DNA of 64,000 nt from Streptomyces sp. NBC_01244 (lineage in GTDB: Bacteria > Actinomycetota > Actinomycetes > Streptomycetales > Streptomycetaceae): assembly GCF_035987325.1 (NCBI RefSeq), contig NZ_CP108488.1, positions 5,518,001 to 5,582,000 of the forward strand, read 5' to 3'. A program made the position numbers and the translations under genes. Within the stretch, counting starts at the first letter, position 1. Every line of letters begins with the position of its first letter. The notes below the pieces were generated by a model. The model ran no database searches. It worked only from the letters and a program-made list of their open reading frames with translations, and was not told where the DNA came from. Positions 3,083-8,411 of this stretch are shown here, in pieces.

Positions 3083-3844
3083 ATGGCGAACGAACCGGAA
3101 GACGACGGCACCGGGCTCCCGGCGAGCCTGGCGATGGCCTGGGGCCTGCGCGAACGCCCCGGCAAGGGCCCGCGCCCCACCCTCACCCTCCAGCGGATCG
3201 TGGACGCGGCGGTGGCGCTCGCCGCCACGGAGGGCATGGACGCCGTCTCCATGGGCCGGGTGGCCAAAGAGCTCGGCGTCTCGACGATGTCCCTCTACCG
3301 GTACGTCACGGCGAAGGAAGAGCTCTACATCCTGATGGCCGACGCGGGTGTCGGCGCCCCGCCGGCCCCCTCCGGGGTTGCGGGCTGGCGGGAGCTGCTG
3401 ACCGAATGGGCGTACGCGCAGCGGGCCGTCCTGATGGCCAACTCCTGGATCGTGCGCATCCCGCTCACCGGGGCGCCCGTCAGCCCCAACCAGCTCGCCT
3501 GGATGGAACGCGGGCTCGCGGCGATGACCGGGACCGCCCTGAGGGAGGGCGAGAAGGTCTCGGCGATCATCCTGATCGGCGGCCTCGTGCGGAACGAGGC
3601 GACGATGGTCGCGGACATGATGGACGCCATCGTGAAGTCAGGCGTCGCACCGGACCAGGTACTGGGCCGCTACGTACGCACCCTGCGGGTGATGACCGGC
3701 CCGGACACGCACCCGGCGGTGACGCGCCTGCTGGAGTCCGACGCGTTCTCGGGCGCCGACGAGCCGGACTTCCAGTTCCGCTTCGGCCTGGACCGCATCC
3801 TGGACGGCCTGGCGGCGCTGATCAGCGAGCGGTCCACTCCGTGA
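3083..3844 (+). CDS. TetR/AcrR family transcriptional regulator
   Basis: A 253-residue repressor-type protein. The N-terminal DNA-binding domain covers roughly residues 35-85, with the helix-turn-helix VSMGRVAKELGVSTMSLYRYV. The C-terminal ligand-binding domain belongs to the larger class often found beside DrrAB transporters. ATG 3083 follows GGAGGAGGGAGCGGCG, a strong ribosome site, and is preferred over the GTG at 3065. It is divergent from the ABC pair with the palindromic site between them, which points to substrate-responsive derepression of the exporter. Its last 23 bases overlap the antisense DUF397 gene. Confidence 0.93.
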   Translation: MANEPEDDGTGLPASLAMAWGLRERPGKGPRPTLTLQRIVDAAVALAATEGMDAVSMGRVAKELGVSTMSLYRYVTAKEELYILMADAGVGAPPAPSGVAGWRELLTEWAYAQRAVLMANSWIVRIPLTGAPVSPNQLAWMERGLAAMTGTALREGEKVSAIILIGGLVRNEATMVADMMDAIVKSGVAPDQVLGRYVRTLRVMTGPDTHPAVTRLLESDAFSGADEPDFQFRFGLDRILDGLAALISERSTP

Positions 3845-4067
3845 GGGTGGCCCAGGCGGCGGGGGTCAGGTCCAGCACGGGGCCGTTCTGGACCTTCGAG
3901 TCGCGGACGTGGACCGTGTGTGCGCAGGCCGCGACCTCGACGCACTGACCGCCTTCGCTGCCGCTGTATGAGGACTTCCGCCAGGCGACGGCCACTTCCA
4001 GGCAGGCGCCGCCTTCGCTGCCGCTGTAGCTGGACTTGAACCACGTCAGTGCGGTGGTGGCGCTCAT
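3822..4067 (-). CDS. DUF397 protein with an internal half-domain duplication
   Basis: An 81-residue DUF397 protein. Members usually have about 60-70 residues with one W-F/R-K-S-S-Y-S motif. Here the motif occurs twice, as WFKSSYSGSEGGACLEVA and WRKSSYSGSEGGQCVEVA, followed by the usual HVRDSK and the C-terminal PAAWATLTEW. DUF397 proteins act with the neighbouring XRE/DUF5753 protein in streptomycete developmental and antibiotic regulation (the whiJ/abaA-type arrangement). Biochemically they are poorly understood. The ATG overlaps the XRE stop as ATGA, so the two are coupled. The 3' end overlaps the TetR gene by 23 bases. Confidence 0.88.
   Translation of the reverse strand: MSATTALTWFKSSYSGSEGGACLEVAVAWRKSSYSGSEGGQCVEVAACAHTVHVRDSKVQNGPVLDLTPAAWATLTEWTAR
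3949..4028. repeat. 60-bp tandem duplication inside the DUF397 gene
   Basis: An identical 20-bp core occurs at 3949-3968 and again exactly 60 bp later at 4009-4028, with weaker similarity continuing downstream of each copy. It encodes the doubled KSSYSGSEGG motif. The spacing is 20 codons, so the frame is kept. Confidence 0.85.
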
Positions 4068-4888
4068 GTCTCTCCTAGCAGGCGGTCCAACAGGCCCCGT
4101 GTCTGCTCGGTGTTGAGGGCCTGAGTCCGCAGCATCGCATACTTGCGCGCCAGGATGCTGACCTCATCGGGAGCCGAGACCAGCTGACTGCCGCGCTGGC
4201 TTTCGGTGTAGCCGTGGAGCTGGTGATCCTGGGCTTCCAGGAGCGTGAACGGGCCGTCGAGTCCGGCGTGCGAGGTGCGCCCCAGAGGCATCACCTGAAG
4301 GCTCAGGTCCGGCAGATCGGTGCACTCGCGCAAGTGGCGCAGCTGCTCCGCGTGCACCTCGTCACCACCGATCCGGTCCCGCAGGACGGCTTCCCAGATG
4401 ACGAAGCTCAGCGTCGGAGGAGTCTCGCGGCGCAGGATCACCTTCCGGGCGACGCGCAACGCGGTCAGTGACTCGATCTCCGCTTCCGGGTGGGCAGGTA
4501 CCCGGCAGGTGATGACTGCCCGGGCGTAGTTCTCCGTCTGGAGCAGGCCCGGTACGACCTGGTTGTCGAACCAGGAGAGCGCGATCGCGCCGTCCTCCAG
4601 CCTCAGGTACTCCTCCGCCCACGGCGGAGGGCCGTCCACGGAAGGCATCCCGTGGGCCGCTACGGTCAGAATCCCCGGCAGCCCCAGATGCAGATCCATC
4701 AGCTCCGCGACGTTCGGCATCAGCGCGCGGCGGCCCTGCTCGATGGAGGCGATGGTCTCCGCGTCCAGATTGACCAGCTCTCCGAGCTGTTTTTGGGTCA
4801 GGTTCTTGGCTACTCGTGCGGCGGCCACCATCTGCCCCACCATCTTCATGGTGGTCGCGTTGGGCCGTGCGCGCTTCTTCGGTGGCAT
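4064..4888 (-). CDS. XRE-family regulator with DUF5753 domain
   Basis: About 274 residues. The N-terminal helix-turn-helix (roughly 20-75) contains KNLTQKQLGELVNLDAETIAS, and the rest is a DUF5753 domain with markers VVPGLLQTENYARAVI, RQ-type strands LSFVIWEAVLRD and QVMPLGRTSHAGLDGPF. These proteins are the DNA-binding partners of DUF397 proteins in the whiJ-like paralogous sets of Streptomyces. ATG 4888 is preferred because GGGGAG lies about eight bases upstream; a GTG at 4909 is possible. It is divergent from the ATP-binding gene, across a long dyad at 4929-4960 that may be its operator. Confidence 0.93.
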   Translation of the reverse strand: MPPKKRARPNATTMKMVGQMVAAARVAKNLTQKQLGELVNLDAETIASIEQGRRALMPNVAELMDLHLGLPGILTVAAHGMPSVDGPPPWAEEYLRLEDGAIALSWFDNQVVPGLLQTENYARAVITCRVPAHPEAEIESLTALRVARKVILRRETPPTLSFVIWEAVLRDRIGGDEVHAEQLRHLRECTDLPDLSLQVMPLGRTSHAGLDGPFTLLEAQDHQLHGYTESQRGSQLVSAPDEVSILARKYAMLRTQALNTEQTRGLLDRLLGET

Positions 4889-4928
4889 GACAGCGAACTC
4901 CCCACCCACGTGCGTGGACTACCCCGCT

Positions 4929-4960
4929 CCGACCCGTACTCAACAAGGAGTACGGGTCGG
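4929..4960. promoter_or_regulatory. Perfect 13-bp dyad between the XRE and ATPase genes
   Basis: Arms 4929-4941 and 4948-4960 are perfect complements (CCGACCCGTACTC and its inverse) around a 6-nt spacer. It lies 41 bp upstream of the XRE start and 18 bp upstream of the ATPase GTG, where an operator or shared promoter element would be. Likely bound by the XRE protein (inference). Confidence 0.65.
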
Positions 4961-4977
4961 CGCAGAGTTCCACGCTA

Positions 4978-5397
4978 GTGACTGCCCGCGACGATCGAGG
5001 GGTGAATCTGCATACTCAACCCGCCCTGGTCCAGGAGCGTCTCTACCTGCGCTCACCCCAAACCATCGGCGCCGCACGCCACTTCACACGTGACACCTTG
5101 GAGGTGTGGGGGCGGCTCGACCGTCACGAGGACGTGTTGCTCTGCGTGAGCGAGCTGGCGACCAACGCGCTGCGGTACGGGGTCCCGCGCGGGCGGGGCT
5201 ATCTGCTGCGGCTGCTCACCTACGACGGGACCGTCCGCGTCGAGGTGCACGACAGCGGGCCCGGGCTGTCGCGGATCCGGGAGCGGACGGCCGGGCGCGG
5301 GTTGCTCCTCGTGGGGGCGCTGGCCGATGCGTGGGGGGTGCTGCCGCGGGCTCCCGGGAAGGTCGTCTGGTGCGAATTCCGGGGGCTCGGCTGCTAG
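4978..5397 (+). CDS. ATP-binding protein, anti-sigma-factor-like (SpoIIAB/RsbW-type HATPase_c)
   Basis: A 139-residue single-domain GHKL ATPase. The N box is VSELATNALRYG, the G1 box is VEVHDSGPGL and the G2 box is GRGLLLVGALADAWGV. Streptomyces chromosomes carry many such proteins. Some are anti-sigma kinases; most are uncharacterised and often lie beside XRE/DUF397 pairs, as here. The start is uncertain: GTG 4978 has no clear ribosome site, and GTG 5002 is a second choice. It is divergent from the XRE gene and upstream of the membrane/STAND pair, 36 bp away, so it could be co-transcribed with them. Confidence 0.88.
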   Translation: MTARDDRGVNLHTQPALVQERLYLRSPQTIGAARHFTRDTLEVWGRLDRHEDVLLCVSELATNALRYGVPRGRGYLLRLLTYDGTVRVEVHDSGPGLSRIRERTAGRGLLLVGALADAWGVLPRAPGKVVWCEFRGLGC

Positions 5398-5433: not shown

Positions 5434-5814
5434 ATGTCGGTGCCGCTGCGGTGGGTTGTGGTCGTCGGGGGGACGGGGATCGCCTTCCTGATCGGGTTCC
5501 GGCTGGGGGTGTGGGACCCCTTCGGCTGGCTGCCGGAGAAGGACTCCGACCGGGTGTCGGCGGCCGCCGGATTCGGCGGGGCCATCGCCGCGGTGTGCGC
5601 GCTGGTCGGCGGCTGGTGGGCCGGTGGCGGCGGGGAGGGCGGGAACTCCCTGCGGCAGCGCGCCCGCGCCTCCGGCACCAGCCGGGTCACGCAGACCGGC
5701 GGCGGCGGCTCCGGCCCGGTGGACCAGCGGGCGCGCGCCGACGGGGACTCCCGCGTACAGCAGACGGCCGCCGGCGGCGGTGAGCAGCAGCCGGATCCGG
5801 ATCCGGCTCCGTGA
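5434..5814 (+). CDS. Small two-helix membrane protein with two copies of a QRARA-x-G motif
   Basis: A 126-residue protein I do not recognise as a named family. Hydrophobic segments lie at about residues 7-24 and 44-62, followed by a Gly-rich cytosolic-type tail. The tail carries two copies of one motif: QRARASGTSRVTQ (about 75-87) and QRARADGDSRVQQ (about 99-111), each followed by a Gly/Ala-rich patch. The next gene's N-terminus carries a third copy. The stop TGA overlaps the GTG of that gene (GTGA), so the two are coupled. The layout of membrane domain plus repeated short motif, paired with a STAND protein bearing the same motif, resembles effector/sensor pairs that signal through amyloid-type motifs. 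This is inference. Confidence 0.8.
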   Translation: MSVPLRWVVVVGGTGIAFLIGFRLGVWDPFGWLPEKDSDRVSAAAGFGGAIAAVCALVGGWWAGGGGEGGNSLRQRARASGTSRVTQTGGGGSGPVDQRARADGDSRVQQTAAGGGEQQPDPDPAP

Positions 5815-8411
5815 ACGCCGAGCAGCGGGCGCGGGCCGAGGGGCAGGCACGGATCACGCAGGTGACGGTGGCGGGGGACTACGTCACCCACGCGCCGTCC
5901 GAGGGTCCCGTAACCCCGGCCGCACCGGGGCTGCCCGCTCCGCCCGACGCGCTCGTGGGGCGGGACGGCCCGGTCAAGGCGCTGACGGACCTGCTCGACG
6001 AGGGCGGCGGCGGGGCTCCGGTGACCGTTGTGGCGGGGCTGCCGGGGGTCGGCAAGAGTGCGCTGGCCGTGGCGACGGCCCATCGGGCGGTGGAGTACGG
6101 GTGGTTCGAGGAACGGGTGTTCTTCCTCCAGCTGCACGGCTACGCCCCGAACGACGCGGTGAGCGGGGCGCAGGCGGTGCGCGAGATGCTGCGCCGTCTC
6201 GGGGTCGGGGACGCGGACGTGCCGCCGTCGCCGGACGGGCAGGTGGCGCTGTACCGGGCCCGGCTGGCCTCGCTGGCGCGGGCGGGGCAGCGGGTGCTGA
6301 TCGTCGCGGACGACGCCGGGGCGGTGTCCCAGGTGCAGGACCTCGTACCGCCGGACGGCACGCACCGGCTACTGGTGACCTCGCGGCACCGGCTGGTCGC
6401 GCCGGGGTTCGCCGCGCGGGTGGTCGTCCTGGACGAGCTGGCGGTGGAACCCGCGGCGGAACTGGTCGCGGGCGCGCTGCTGCGGACCTGGCCGGAGGAT
6501 CCGCGGCCGGCGCGGGAGCCGGAGGCGCTGGCGCGGATCGCGGATCTGTGCGGGCGGCTGCCGCTGGCCCTGACGGTGGCGGGGGCGCTGCTGGCGGGTG
6601 ATCCCGGGCTGGCGGCGGGCGAGTTGGCGCGGCAACTGGCCGAGGCGAGGACCCGGCTGGAGAAGCTGCACATCGACGGTGACGTGCCGGTCGGGGTTCG
6701 GGCCGCCTTCGACCTCTCGTACGCGAGGCTTCCGGCGGACCAGGCGAGGATCTTCCGGCTGCTGACGGTGGTGCCGGGGACGGACTGCTCCACACTGTTC
6801 GCCCACCTGGCCACCTGCGAAGGCGAGCCGGGACCGGGGGGCTTCGCGGAGACGGCCGCTGAGCTGCGGCCCGCGCTGGCAGCGCTCGTACGGGCCAGCC
6901 TGCTGGCGGAGCAGCCGGTCGGCTCGGGGCGGTGGCGGATGCACGACCTGGTGCGGCTCTACGCGCGGGAGCGCGGGGAGGAGCATGCGGAAGAGGACGG
7001 CCGGGAGGCCGTGATCGACCAGCTCCTGAAGGGTCTGATCGAGGCCGCCGCACGCGCCGCGCAGGCCCTCGGGATCCAGCGCGGTCCGGCCGCGACCGGG
7101 GACCTGCCGTCCATGGCCGAGGCGGCGCACTGGTTCGAGGCCGAACGGGCCGTACTGGTGGCCACCGTGGTCTTCGCGGCCGACAGCGGCCGCAGCGTGC
7201 TCGGCGCCGGACTGTACAACCACGTGACCGGCTACCTGGCGGCCTACGGATACCTGGAGAACGCCCTGCTGCTGGAGCGCAGCATGGTGGAGGGGGCCGG
7301 GCGGCACGGCGATCCGGGGGTTCTCGCCGACGCGCTGTGCAACCTGAGTGCCGTTCTTCTGTGCTTCACCACGCGGCGCCTCGTGGGCGAAGCGGCCGAG
7401 TGCTTGAAGGCCGCTCTCGAGACGTTCCGCGCGGTGGGAAACCGGGCGGGGGAAGCCAGGGCGATGAATCTCCTGGGGACCGTGCTGGAGCGGCAGGGCC
7501 GGTTCGAGGAGGCGACGGTGATCCTCGTGGAGGCCCTGGCGCTCCTCCAGGAGCTGGACATGCCGACCGAGCAGTGGCCGATGCTGGGCGGTCTCGGGGG
7601 CAACCTGGAGAGGCTGGAGCGGTGGGACGAGGCCGTGGCCGTGTACCGGGCGGCCGTCACGCTGTTGGAGGAGGTCGGCAACCCCAACTGGACCGTGATG
7701 ATGCTGGGGTCGCTCGGGGGCGCGCTGTGGCGGACCGGGGAGCGCGAGGAGGCCATGGCCGTGCATTCGGAGGCGCTCGCCCTGAGCAGGGAGGCGGGCA
7801 ACAGGTCGGAGACCGGCCGGCTGCTCCTGCGCGTGAGCGAGTCACTGCTCGAGGACGGCAGGACGGAGGAGGCCCGGGCCCTCTGCGAGGAGGCCGCCGG
7901 GCTGTTCGCGGAGATCGGCCAGGAGTCCGGTCAGGCGCTGGCGCTGTTCTCACTGGCGTGCGTCCAGGAGCAGGAGGGCCTGGTGACCGAGCAACTGGAG
8001 GCACTGGAGCGGGCCGTCGTGCTCTTCGTCCGGGTGGGGGACGAGGACAACACGGTCAGGGCGGTCACGGCGATGGCCAACACCCTGACGCGGGTCGGCG
8101 GTACGGCTGAGGGCGCAAGGGCCTTCGACATGCTGGCGGAGGCGTGCGAGGCGGTGGGTCTTGCGGAGTCGGCCGCCGAGGCCCGCGGGGCCGCGGCGGA
8201 GCTCCGCCGGCCGGCGGACGGGGGCGTGACGCCGGACGGGGGCGTGACGCCGGACGGGGACGTGGCGCCGGACGGGGACGTGACGCCGGCCTGGGACGTG
8301 ACGCCGGCCTGGGGCGCCGCCGAGGCGGCGGAGCCCGTTACGGATCCGGGGGCCGCCGGGGTCCCCGGCAGCGCCCCCCGGCAGCGCTGGCGGGACCGCT
8401 TCAGGCGCTGA
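5811..8411 (+). CDS. NB-ARC/TPR STAND protein (NLR-like) with an N-terminal shared motif
   Basis: An 866-residue signal-transducing NTPase. Residues 5-18 are the motif QRARAEGQARITQV, matching the two copies in the upstream membrane protein. The NB-ARC domain spans about 48-390: Walker A GLPGVGKSA (76-84), Walker B-like RVLIVADDA, the RNBS-type LLVTSRHRLV, GRLPLALTVAGALL (GxP) and an MHD motif WRMHDLVRLYARE. TPR-like helical repeats fill about 410-800. The tail (from about residue 803) has a six-residue DGGVTP-type repeat. NB-ARC proteins oligomerise on ligand binding; bacterial members include immune sensors and regulators. There is no SARP DNA-binding domain at the N-terminus, so it is not an AfsR-type activator. 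The role is inferred; the domain calls are strong. Confidence 0.93.
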   Translation: MNAEQRARAEGQARITQVTVAGDYVTHAPSEGPVTPAAPGLPAPPDALVGRDGPVKALTDLLDEGGGGAPVTVVAGLPGVGKSALAVATAHRAVEYGWFEERVFFLQLHGYAPNDAVSGAQAVREMLRRLGVGDADVPPSPDGQVALYRARLASLARAGQRVLIVADDAGAVSQVQDLVPPDGTHRLLVTSRHRLVAPGFAARVVVLDELAVEPAAELVAGALLRTWPEDPRPAREPEALARIADLCGRLPLALTVAGALLAGDPGLAAGELARQLAEARTRLEKLHIDGDVPVGVRAAFDLSYARLPADQARIFRLLTVVPGTDCSTLFAHLATCEGEPGPGGFAETAAELRPALAALVRASLLAEQPVGSGRWRMHDLVRLYARERGEEHAEEDGREAVIDQLLKGLIEAAARAAQALGIQRGPAATGDLPSMAEAAHWFEAERAVLVATVVFAADSGRSVLGAGLYNHVTGYLAAYGYLENALLLERSMVEGAGRHGDPGVLADALCNLSAVLLCFTTRRLVGEAAECLKAALETFRAVGNRAGEARAMNLLGTVLERQGRFEEATVILVEALALLQELDMPTEQWPMLGGLGGNLERLERWDEAVAVYRAAVTLLEEVGNPNWTVMMLGSLGGALWRTGEREEAMAVHSEALALSREAGNRSETGRLLLRVSESLLEDGRTEEARALCEEAAGLFAEIGQESGQALALFSLACVQEQEGLVTEQLEALERAVVLFVRVGDEDNTVRAVTAMANTLTRVGGTAEGARAFDMLAEACEAVGLAESAAEARGAAAELRRPADGGVTPDGGVTPDGDVAPDGDVTPAWDVTPAWGAAEAAEPVTDPGAAGVPGSAPRQRWRDRFRR
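8217..8306 (+). repeat. 18-bp in-frame tandem repeat in the STAND C-terminus
   Basis: Five 18-bp units (8217-8234 and onward) encode DGGVTP, DGGVTP, DGDVAP, DGDVTP and AWDVTP. The first two are identical in DNA, so expansion is recent. It forms an acidic, proline-spaced tail after the TPR region. Confidence 0.85.

What the first reader, a model, noticed from the sequence alone, without database searches (positions are those of the whole stretch)
5434..8411. STAND (NLR-like) protein coupled to a small membrane protein by a shared repeated motif
The 126-aa membrane protein carries two copies, and the 866-aa NB-ARC/TPR protein one N-terminal copy, of QRARA-x-G-x-(S/A)-R-(V/I)-(T/Q)-Q, and their genes overlap as GTGA. 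In fungal and bacterial NLR-like systems a short amyloid-type motif at the N-terminus of the STAND protein templates the same motif in an adjacent effector (RHIM-like/BASS-type signalling). Here the effector candidate would be a two-helix membrane protein with its motif duplicated in the tail, which would suggest ligand-triggered membrane disruption, perhaps an anti-phage cell-death system. The motif does not obviously match a named BASS family to my eye, so it may be new. The motif, overlap and domains are seen; the amyloid and immune roles are inferred.
Basis: partly seen in the sequence, partly recalled or inferred. Interest (0 to 1): 0.78.

Follow-up and report, generated by a model that had tools for sequence, protein, structure and literature searches.

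The report
Membrane-hairpin partner of a bacterial NLR
A Streptomyces immune-receptor-like protein and a tiny two-helix membrane protein are encoded side by side and carry the same short sequence tag, which fits the receptor switching on the membrane protein by tag-to-tag contact, with a membrane hairpin standing where a different effector domain is usually found.

Summary
In detail: the pattern QRARAxGx(S/A)R(V/I)(T/Q)Q occurs three times in the window's six frames, twice in the tail of a 126-aa two-helix membrane protein and once at the disordered N-terminus of an NB-ARC/TPR STAND protein; the genes overlap as GTGA. Among 45 hairpin loci with a motif tail, 40 adjoin a STAND gene with the same motif class. 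Cognate tails and receptors resemble each other more than mismatched ones (38 pairs, p=5e-5; one per clade, p=5e-5), but not within the window's close clade (p=0.15). The hairpin also occurs with a second motif class, matched in its receptor, and fused in front of NB-ARC without a detected motif.

The guess that the motif is new is not supported: in 150 Streptomyces genomes it sits mostly on Bell-like small proteins (42 of 56 places; hairpin 5), 30 of the 42 beside another motif-bearing ORF. It lacks the RHIM/BASS3 core. What looks unusual is the effector: a ~65-residue membrane hairpin in Bell's place. I read it as a variant of NLR amyloid signalling; amyloid, toxicity and anti-phage roles are inferred, not shown.

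The parts
5434..5814 (+). Two-helix membrane-hairpin protein with two tail motif copies (effector candidate), 126 aa
   Evidence: ORF; 38 homologues; AF2; hydropathy
5440..5514 (+). Membrane helix 1 (residues 3-27)
   Evidence: AF2; hydropathy
5542..5622 (+). Membrane helix 2 (residues 37-63)
   Evidence: AF2; hydropathy
5647..5712 (+).
   Evidence: profile A4 E 2.4e-8 in own genome
5716..5784 (+).
   Evidence: profile A4 E 1.4e-5
5811..5814 (+). GTGA: GTG start of the STAND gene overlapping the TGA stop of the membrane-protein gene
   Evidence: same 4-nt overlap in 20 of 38 pairs
5811..8411 (+). STAND (NB-ARC/TPR) protein, 866 aa
   Evidence: Pfam; AF2 mean pLDDT 82.9
5817..5891 (+).
   Evidence: profile A4 E 8.1e-5; residues 1-38 mostly pLDDT<50
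5943..6980 (+). NB-ARC nucleotide-binding module (about residues 45-390)
   Evidence: Foldseek to Apaf-1, NRC1, CED-4
6036..6059 (+). P-loop GLPGVGKS of NB-ARC (residues 76-83)
   Evidence: G76, G79-K82 invariant in alignment A6
7113..8207 (+). TPR superhelix (about residues 435-799), presumed ligand sensor

Best explanation
A two-gene receptor/executioner cassette. The cytosolic STAND protein (TPR sensor, NB-ARC switch) oligomerises on an unknown trigger and clusters its N-terminal motif; that cluster nucleates the same motif, present in tandem in the cytosolic tail of the two-helix membrane protein; forced clustering of the hairpins disturbs the membrane and halts or kills the cell, probably as defence. 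Shown here: gene pair, shared motif, its co-diversification with the receptor across clades, its exchange as a class (A or B) across hairpins, and the covalently fused alternative. Inferred: that motif contact is physical and amyloid-like, that the hairpin is toxic when clustered, that the trigger is biotic. It works like Bell/BASS-NLR amyloid signalling with a different effector domain.
For: Pairing: 40 of 45 hairpin loci with a motif tail have an adjacent STAND gene with the same motif class (class judged by eye; an automatic call of receptor class from other loci's tails agreed in 35 of 38). Partners of the short-motif clade were checked by Pfam: NB-ARC and TPR in L042, L048-L052, L054, L055; L053 gives only weak STAND-like matches. 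Cross-protein similarity: cognate mean SW 61.7 vs 40.1 non-cognate, 34 of 38 above the 95th percentile of shuffled tails; one row per clade (14) 63.9 vs 41.0, p=5e-5; within class A p=5e-5, within class B p=8e-4. In clade L042, L048-L056 the A-to-Q span of the first tail copy is 9 residues (8 in L055) and so is that of the receptor in the 8 scored two-gene pairs other than L053 (11 there; L048 receptor unscored); in the other class A pairs where both sides could be scored it is 11 on both (the second tail copies of the short clade are 9 or 11). Fusion: nine proteins of 1318-1357 aa start with the hairpin and continue towards NB-ARC/TPR; hairpin homology to the window's type 97.7% by hhalign vs 0.7% or less for reversed controls; no detected motif (best E 0.063); seven of them placed next to two-gene motif pairs in the NB-ARC tree (99/92, midpoint-rooted). 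Effector exchange: two Bell-paired NLRs join the window's group of 15 hairpin-paired NLRs (98/91). N-terminal charge exceeds loop charge in 60 of 61 hairpins, fitting cytosolic ends.
Against: No amyloid, toxicity or phage test was possible. The tails are R/G-rich and lack the RHIM core. Seven of 55 hairpin loci have no motif tail, and five of the 45 motif-tailed ones lack a standard STAND partner (two non-STAND partners, one divergent motif-bearing neighbour, one with none found, one decayed). No PADLOC match beyond a generic TPR model and a line at E 0.3, no match in the phage or plasmid collections, and the window's flanks look like ordinary chromosome. AF2 of the hairpin is of moderate to low confidence.
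Confidence: 0.62

Rival explanations
1. Membrane anchor, not executioner: the hairpin is a passive tether that recruits or stores the STAND protein at the membrane through the motif, and the STAND protein itself signals.
For: Fusions put the hairpin directly on the STAND protein, as a tether would; no enzymatic domain is found in the hairpin protein.
Against: The hairpin occupies the position of the Bell-like proteins in gene pairs with the same motif, and no other effector domain is annotated in the window's STAND protein.
Confidence: 0.22
2. Homotypic but non-amyloid adaptor: the tags form a small soluble beta or coiled assembly (as with effector-associated domains), so that the wiring is as proposed but no templating occurs.
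For: The window's copies are arginine- and glycine-rich and lack the RHIM core (0 of 149); shared-domain pairing without amyloid is the EAD principle (passages of PMC7159879 and PMC8195603).
Against: The motif class is found C-terminally on Bell-like proteins and N-terminally on NLRs, the arrangement for which amyloid is proposed (passages of PMC7889193); the motif regions are predicted disordered.
Confidence: 0.3
3. Developmental or regulatory module of AfsR type without defence role.
For: The closest solved relative of the STAND core is AfsR (E 2.4e-106); the close clade keeps the locus beside the same HATPase gene (L026-L030) and in part beside the SRPBCC gene (L026, L027, L029), so the position is vertically stable there.
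Against: No SARP DNA-binding domain; patchy distribution, 50 of 392 Streptomyces genomes with any match to hairpin profile A2 (some of them motif-only); membrane partner.
Confidence: 0.12
4. Chance or compositional similarity of two R/G-rich disordered tails.
For: Both regions are of low complexity and GC-rich.
Against: Shuffle controls, the whole-genome search and cognate permutation tests.
Confidence: 0.02

Closest known systems
BASS / Bell-NLR amyloid signalling (Dyrka et al. 2020, J Mol Biol; not held; known here through passages of PMC7889193, PMC8086366, PMC9815663 and PMC12261475 and recall)
   Same: Adjacent or overlapping genes, same short motif at NLR N-terminus and effector C-terminus, motif sometimes repeated on the effector side, actinobacteria; the window's motif class is carried by Bell-like proteins in 42 of 56 places.
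   Different: The effector is a two-helix membrane hairpin; the Bell-like profile built here matches none of 62 hairpin effectors at E<=1 and hhalign hairpin vs Bell is 1.5% or less.
RHIM / PP / BASS3 motif
   Same: Short Q- and G-containing motif shared by receptor and executioner.
   Different: G-phi-Q-phi-G core absent in 149 of 149 copies; the printed BASS3 peptide VDLRDAKGVQVGDGNVQINRF (PMC8086366 section 13) does not resemble it.
AfsR (SARP-STAND-TPR regulator)
   Same: NB-ARC/TPR core, E 2.4e-106 to the solved chain.
   Different: No SARP domain; a disordered motif instead.
SLATT and other 2TM pore-forming effectors of conflict systems (passages of PMC7159879)
   Same: Small two-TM protein in a signalling operon.
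   Different: No SLATT line in the Pfam scan at E<=1; linked by a tail motif rather than by a predicted nucleotide signal.
Effector-associated domains (passages of PMC7159879 and PMC8195603)
   Same: Same element on the receptor-side protein and on a neighbouring effector protein.
   Different: A ~20-residue predicted-disordered motif, not a small helical domain.

Membership tests
STAND / NLR-type ATPase | P-loop NTPase of NB-ARC type plus repeat sensor | tested here: met
   Pfam NB-ARC 5.4e-6, TPR_12 1.3e-21; invariant P-loop; AF2 and Foldseek to Apaf-1, CED-4 and NRC NB-ARC, among many TPR proteins
BASS-type NLR signalling | Same short motif at NLR N-terminus and at C-terminus of an adjacent-gene effector | tested here: met
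BASS-type NLR signalling | Effector has a Bell domain | tested here: not met
   Bell-like HMM (built here from 12 loci; the name Bell for them is recall) finds none of 62 effectors; hhalign 0.1-1.5%
BASS-type NLR signalling | Motif matches a published BASS1-10 profile | not testable with these tools
   Dyrka 2020 not held, supplements not available; the motif class is shared with Bell-like proteins instead
BASS-type NLR signalling | Amyloid or prion behaviour | not testable with these tools
   needs experiments
BASS3 / RHIM | G-phi-Q-phi-G core | tested here: not met
   0 of 149 copies
AfsR | N-terminal SARP DNA-binding domain | tested here: not met
   no such Pfam match; NCBIfam AfsR 188.6 bits vs cut-off 1430
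FxSxx / HaaT RiPP-cluster TPR protein | Equivalog score cut-off | tested here: not met
   107.7 vs 300 and 241 vs 1125 bits
SLATT 2TM effector | SLATT profile match | tested here: not met
   the only Pfam line for the membrane protein at E<=1 is HET-S at E 0.99, below cut-off
Known anti-phage system in PADLOC | System-specific protein match | tested here: not met
   membrane protein: none; STAND protein: generic TPR model and C3a198 at E 0.3

The most novel reading that the evidence does not exclude
A new executioner class for bacterial amyloid-type NLR signalling: a ~65-residue two-helix membrane hairpin that is plugged into at least two different templating motif classes, exchanges with Bell-like effectors within one receptor lineage, and in a related lineage is wired covalently to the receptor with the motif discarded. 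This would show that the motif is a dispensable, swappable plug between receptor and executioner.
Probability: 0.5. Interest if true: 0.75.

Novelty: new variant of a known kind. Interest (0 to 1): 0.62.

Why it matters
If right, it separates the three parts of an NLR death pathway (sensor, plug, executioner) in nature's own recombination experiments: the same plug with a Bell-like domain or a hairpin, the same hairpin with plug A or B, and the hairpin with no plug but a fusion. That gives direct, small-gene tests of whether short homotypic motifs are what wires bacterial NLRs to membrane killing, with an executioner much smaller than MLKL/HeLo-type bundles.

Tried and rejected
Of 59 places fetched as hairpin loci, L043 and L044 (NuoJ-like by eye) and L080, L081, L082, L084 (motif matches without hairpin) were dropped. 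Dropped from the pair statistics: L047 (pair looks decayed), L004 (STAND gene cut short), L037 (STAND gene upstream), L033 and L062 (partner not STAND), L046 (divergent neighbour), L079 (no partner found). A first regex split of motif classes put L040 and L052 wrongly in class B; one search repeats it corrected. The automatic class call missed L027, L041 and L054 (35 of 38 right). Cognate matching inside the close clade is null; there, 23 of 29 pairs were matched by equal contig length (organism names agreeing where given), not by seen adjacency. The tree holds 64 rows: 37 hairpin-paired, 20 Bell-paired (of 30 with a motif-bearing neighbour) and 7 of 9 fusions; it is midpoint-rooted and has long branches (L140, L053, L032). 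A second two-helix hairpin with motif B (L161, L164, L165, L171) is not a detectable relative (below 1%). Literature searches listed no paper that I saw describing a two-helix hairpin effector of motif-bearing NLRs, but the key 2020 paper is not held and I read only passages of nine papers, so I cannot say it is unpublished.
Full report
What is there. The window lies in a 10-Mb genome; the homologues of the membrane protein that carry an organism name are from Streptomyces. It holds an ORF of 126 aa at 5434-5814 and one of 866 aa at 5811-8411, overlapping as GTGA. The small protein is a membrane hairpin (AF2 helices 3-27 and 37-63; hydropathy gives two segments in 60 of 61 family members) with a disordered tail that carries two motif copies. 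The large protein has a disordered N-terminus with one copy, an NB-ARC module with an invariant P-loop and a TPR superhelix; its fold neighbours include PH0952, Apaf-1, CED-4 and plant NRC proteins besides many TPR proteins, and its nearest solved relative by sequence is AfsR.

The motif is not chance. A looser form is over-represented in the right places against shuffles, and a profile of it finds in the whole genome only these three places at E<=1 (three of its sixteen rows come from the window; 150 of 428 first-look candidates were scored).

The hairpin is a family. Profile A1 matched 20 of 392 Streptomyces genomes (two of these, L043 and L044, are not relatives) and the wider profile A2 50 of 392 (the weakest are motif-only matches) and 10 of 345 genomes of the class, in 3 of 126 genera, the two outside the window's genus barely significant. 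I fetched 59 places and looked at them together with the four loci and the window. After removing six non-hairpins and counting duplicates once, 55 hairpin loci remain: 45 with a motif tail, 3 fused in front of an NB-ARC protein (L057, L058 with TPR, L083 with WD40; L083's hairpin match is weak, E 9e-4), 7 with neither. Of the 45, 40 lie next to a STAND gene with the same motif class (L037 with the STAND gene upstream, L004 with a truncated one); two have a non-STAND partner bearing the same motif (L033: DUF2690; L062: no convincing Pfam domain); L046 has a divergent motif-bearing neighbour, for L079 none was found, L047 looks decayed. In 20 of the 38 pairs used for statistics the genes overlap by four bases, and in 36 of 38 the first start codon lies between -11 and +30 of the stop.

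Two motif classes, matched in the pairs. Class A is the window's (QxAxASGxxRVxQxGGDQ in its fuller form); class B is ASGERSIAxGGNxSGxxSTGD. Of the 38 pairs 11 have class B and 27 class A on the effector side, and by eye the receptor agrees each time; an automatic call agreed in 35 of 38. Hairpins of A-tailed, B-tailed and fused proteins are homologous by profile comparison (96-98% from A to the others, 91-96% among B1, B2 and fusions; the short-motif group matches A at 96.7% but the others only at 8-49%; reversed controls 6% or less). These sets were collected with profile A2 or, for the fusions, from a locus that it found, so the A comparisons are not fully independent.

Co-diversification. 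Tail-to-receptor similarity is higher for true pairs than for mismatched pairs over 38 pairs and over one pair per clade, and in one clade the motif is two residues shorter in the first tail copy and in the receptor (exception L053). Inside the window's close clade, where sequences barely vary, there is no such signal.

Fusion. Nine proteins have the hairpin at the N-terminus of a 1318-1357-aa STAND/TPR protein. They show no A or B motif (best E 0.063; in the same search most of the short-motif pair proteins score, though two receptors, L052 and L054, fail too, and the L055 receptor is not listed), and the NB-ARC domains of seven of them group with those of nine two-gene pairs linked by the short class A motif (99/92). 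A covalent link thus seems to replace the motif, which is what one expects if the motif's job is to bring the two parts together.

The motif is not new, the effector may be. In 150 Streptomyces genomes class A gave 83 hits in 46 genomes, 56 places. Looking at all 56: 42 have an ORF with a ~100-residue helical, Bell-like domain before the motif, 5 have the hairpin (window, L027, L030, L041, L046), 9 neither. A second motif-bearing ORF was found next to 30 of the 42 (20 of these partners match the NLR profile, 10 do not), next to all 5 hairpins, and within 3 of the other 9; 18 places show only one motif-bearing ORF at E<=0.01. 'Bell' here is my recall of the family fitted to the description in PMC7889193 (passages), tested only with a profile built from 12 of these loci. 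In the NB-ARC tree two Bell-paired receptors join the window's group of 15 hairpin-paired ones (98/91), so the effector seems to have been exchanged while the motif stayed. Class B likewise occurs on helical-bundle proteins (L158, L162, L175 by eye), on this hairpin and on an unrelated hairpin.

How it most likely works. Ligand binding to the TPR domain, NB-ARC oligomerisation, clustering of N-terminal motifs, recruitment and templating of the tandem motifs in the hairpin tail, hairpin clustering, membrane damage. Only the pairing, the shared and co-varying motif and the exchangeability are shown; the rest follows by analogy with fungal HET-S/HELLP and bacterial Bell systems (passages of PMC7889193, PMC7885112, PMC8086366) and general knowledge of STAND proteins. 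The main rivals are a passive anchor and a non-amyloid homotypic contact. Amyloid nature is uncertain: the window's copies are more arginine-rich than the fuller class A motif and lack its D-Q end on the effector side.

What is known. The 2020 paper that defined BASS1-10 is not held. From passages in a later paper, BASS motifs occur mainly with Bell domains, also with CHAT and TIR domains. In the papers listed I saw no description of a two-helix hairpin in this role, but I read passages of only nine of them (one section of one). Verdict: a new variant of a known kind.

Noticed in passing
L033:5599-6330 (-): A hairpin with class A motif is followed by a motif + TM + DUF2690 protein instead of a STAND protein, so the motif may also wire a non-NLR membrane sensor.
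   Followed up: partly
L062:4254-5435 (-): A class B hairpin overlaps a 394-aa membrane protein that carries the class B motif but has no convincing Pfam domain.
   Followed up: partly
L161, L164, L165, L171: A second, unrelated small two-helix hairpin with two or three class B motif copies, suggesting that membrane hairpins were recruited to this signalling more than once.
   Followed up: partly
L041:6328-6870 (-): All three motif copies of the effector have lost the last conserved Q (VTL, VLL, IVI) while the adjacent receptor keeps it.
   Followed up: no
L134:3094-7584 (+): Two tandem motif-bearing NLR genes without a motif-bearing effector in the fetched stretch.
   Followed up: no
L059, L067, L069, L073: Hairpin followed by what looks like a third TM helix and an extracytoplasmic domain, without motif.
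   Followed up: no
window 8220-8315: The STAND protein ends in a low-complexity repeat (GGVTPDGGVTPDGDVAPDGDVTPAWDVTPAWG, residues 804-835) of unknown role, predicted disordered.
   Followed up: no
window 3822-5397: DUF397, HTH/DUF5753 and HATPase genes lie upstream; the HATPase is syntenic in the close clade (L026-L030) but was not found next to the more distant pairs examined, so it is probably not part of the system.
   Followed up: yes
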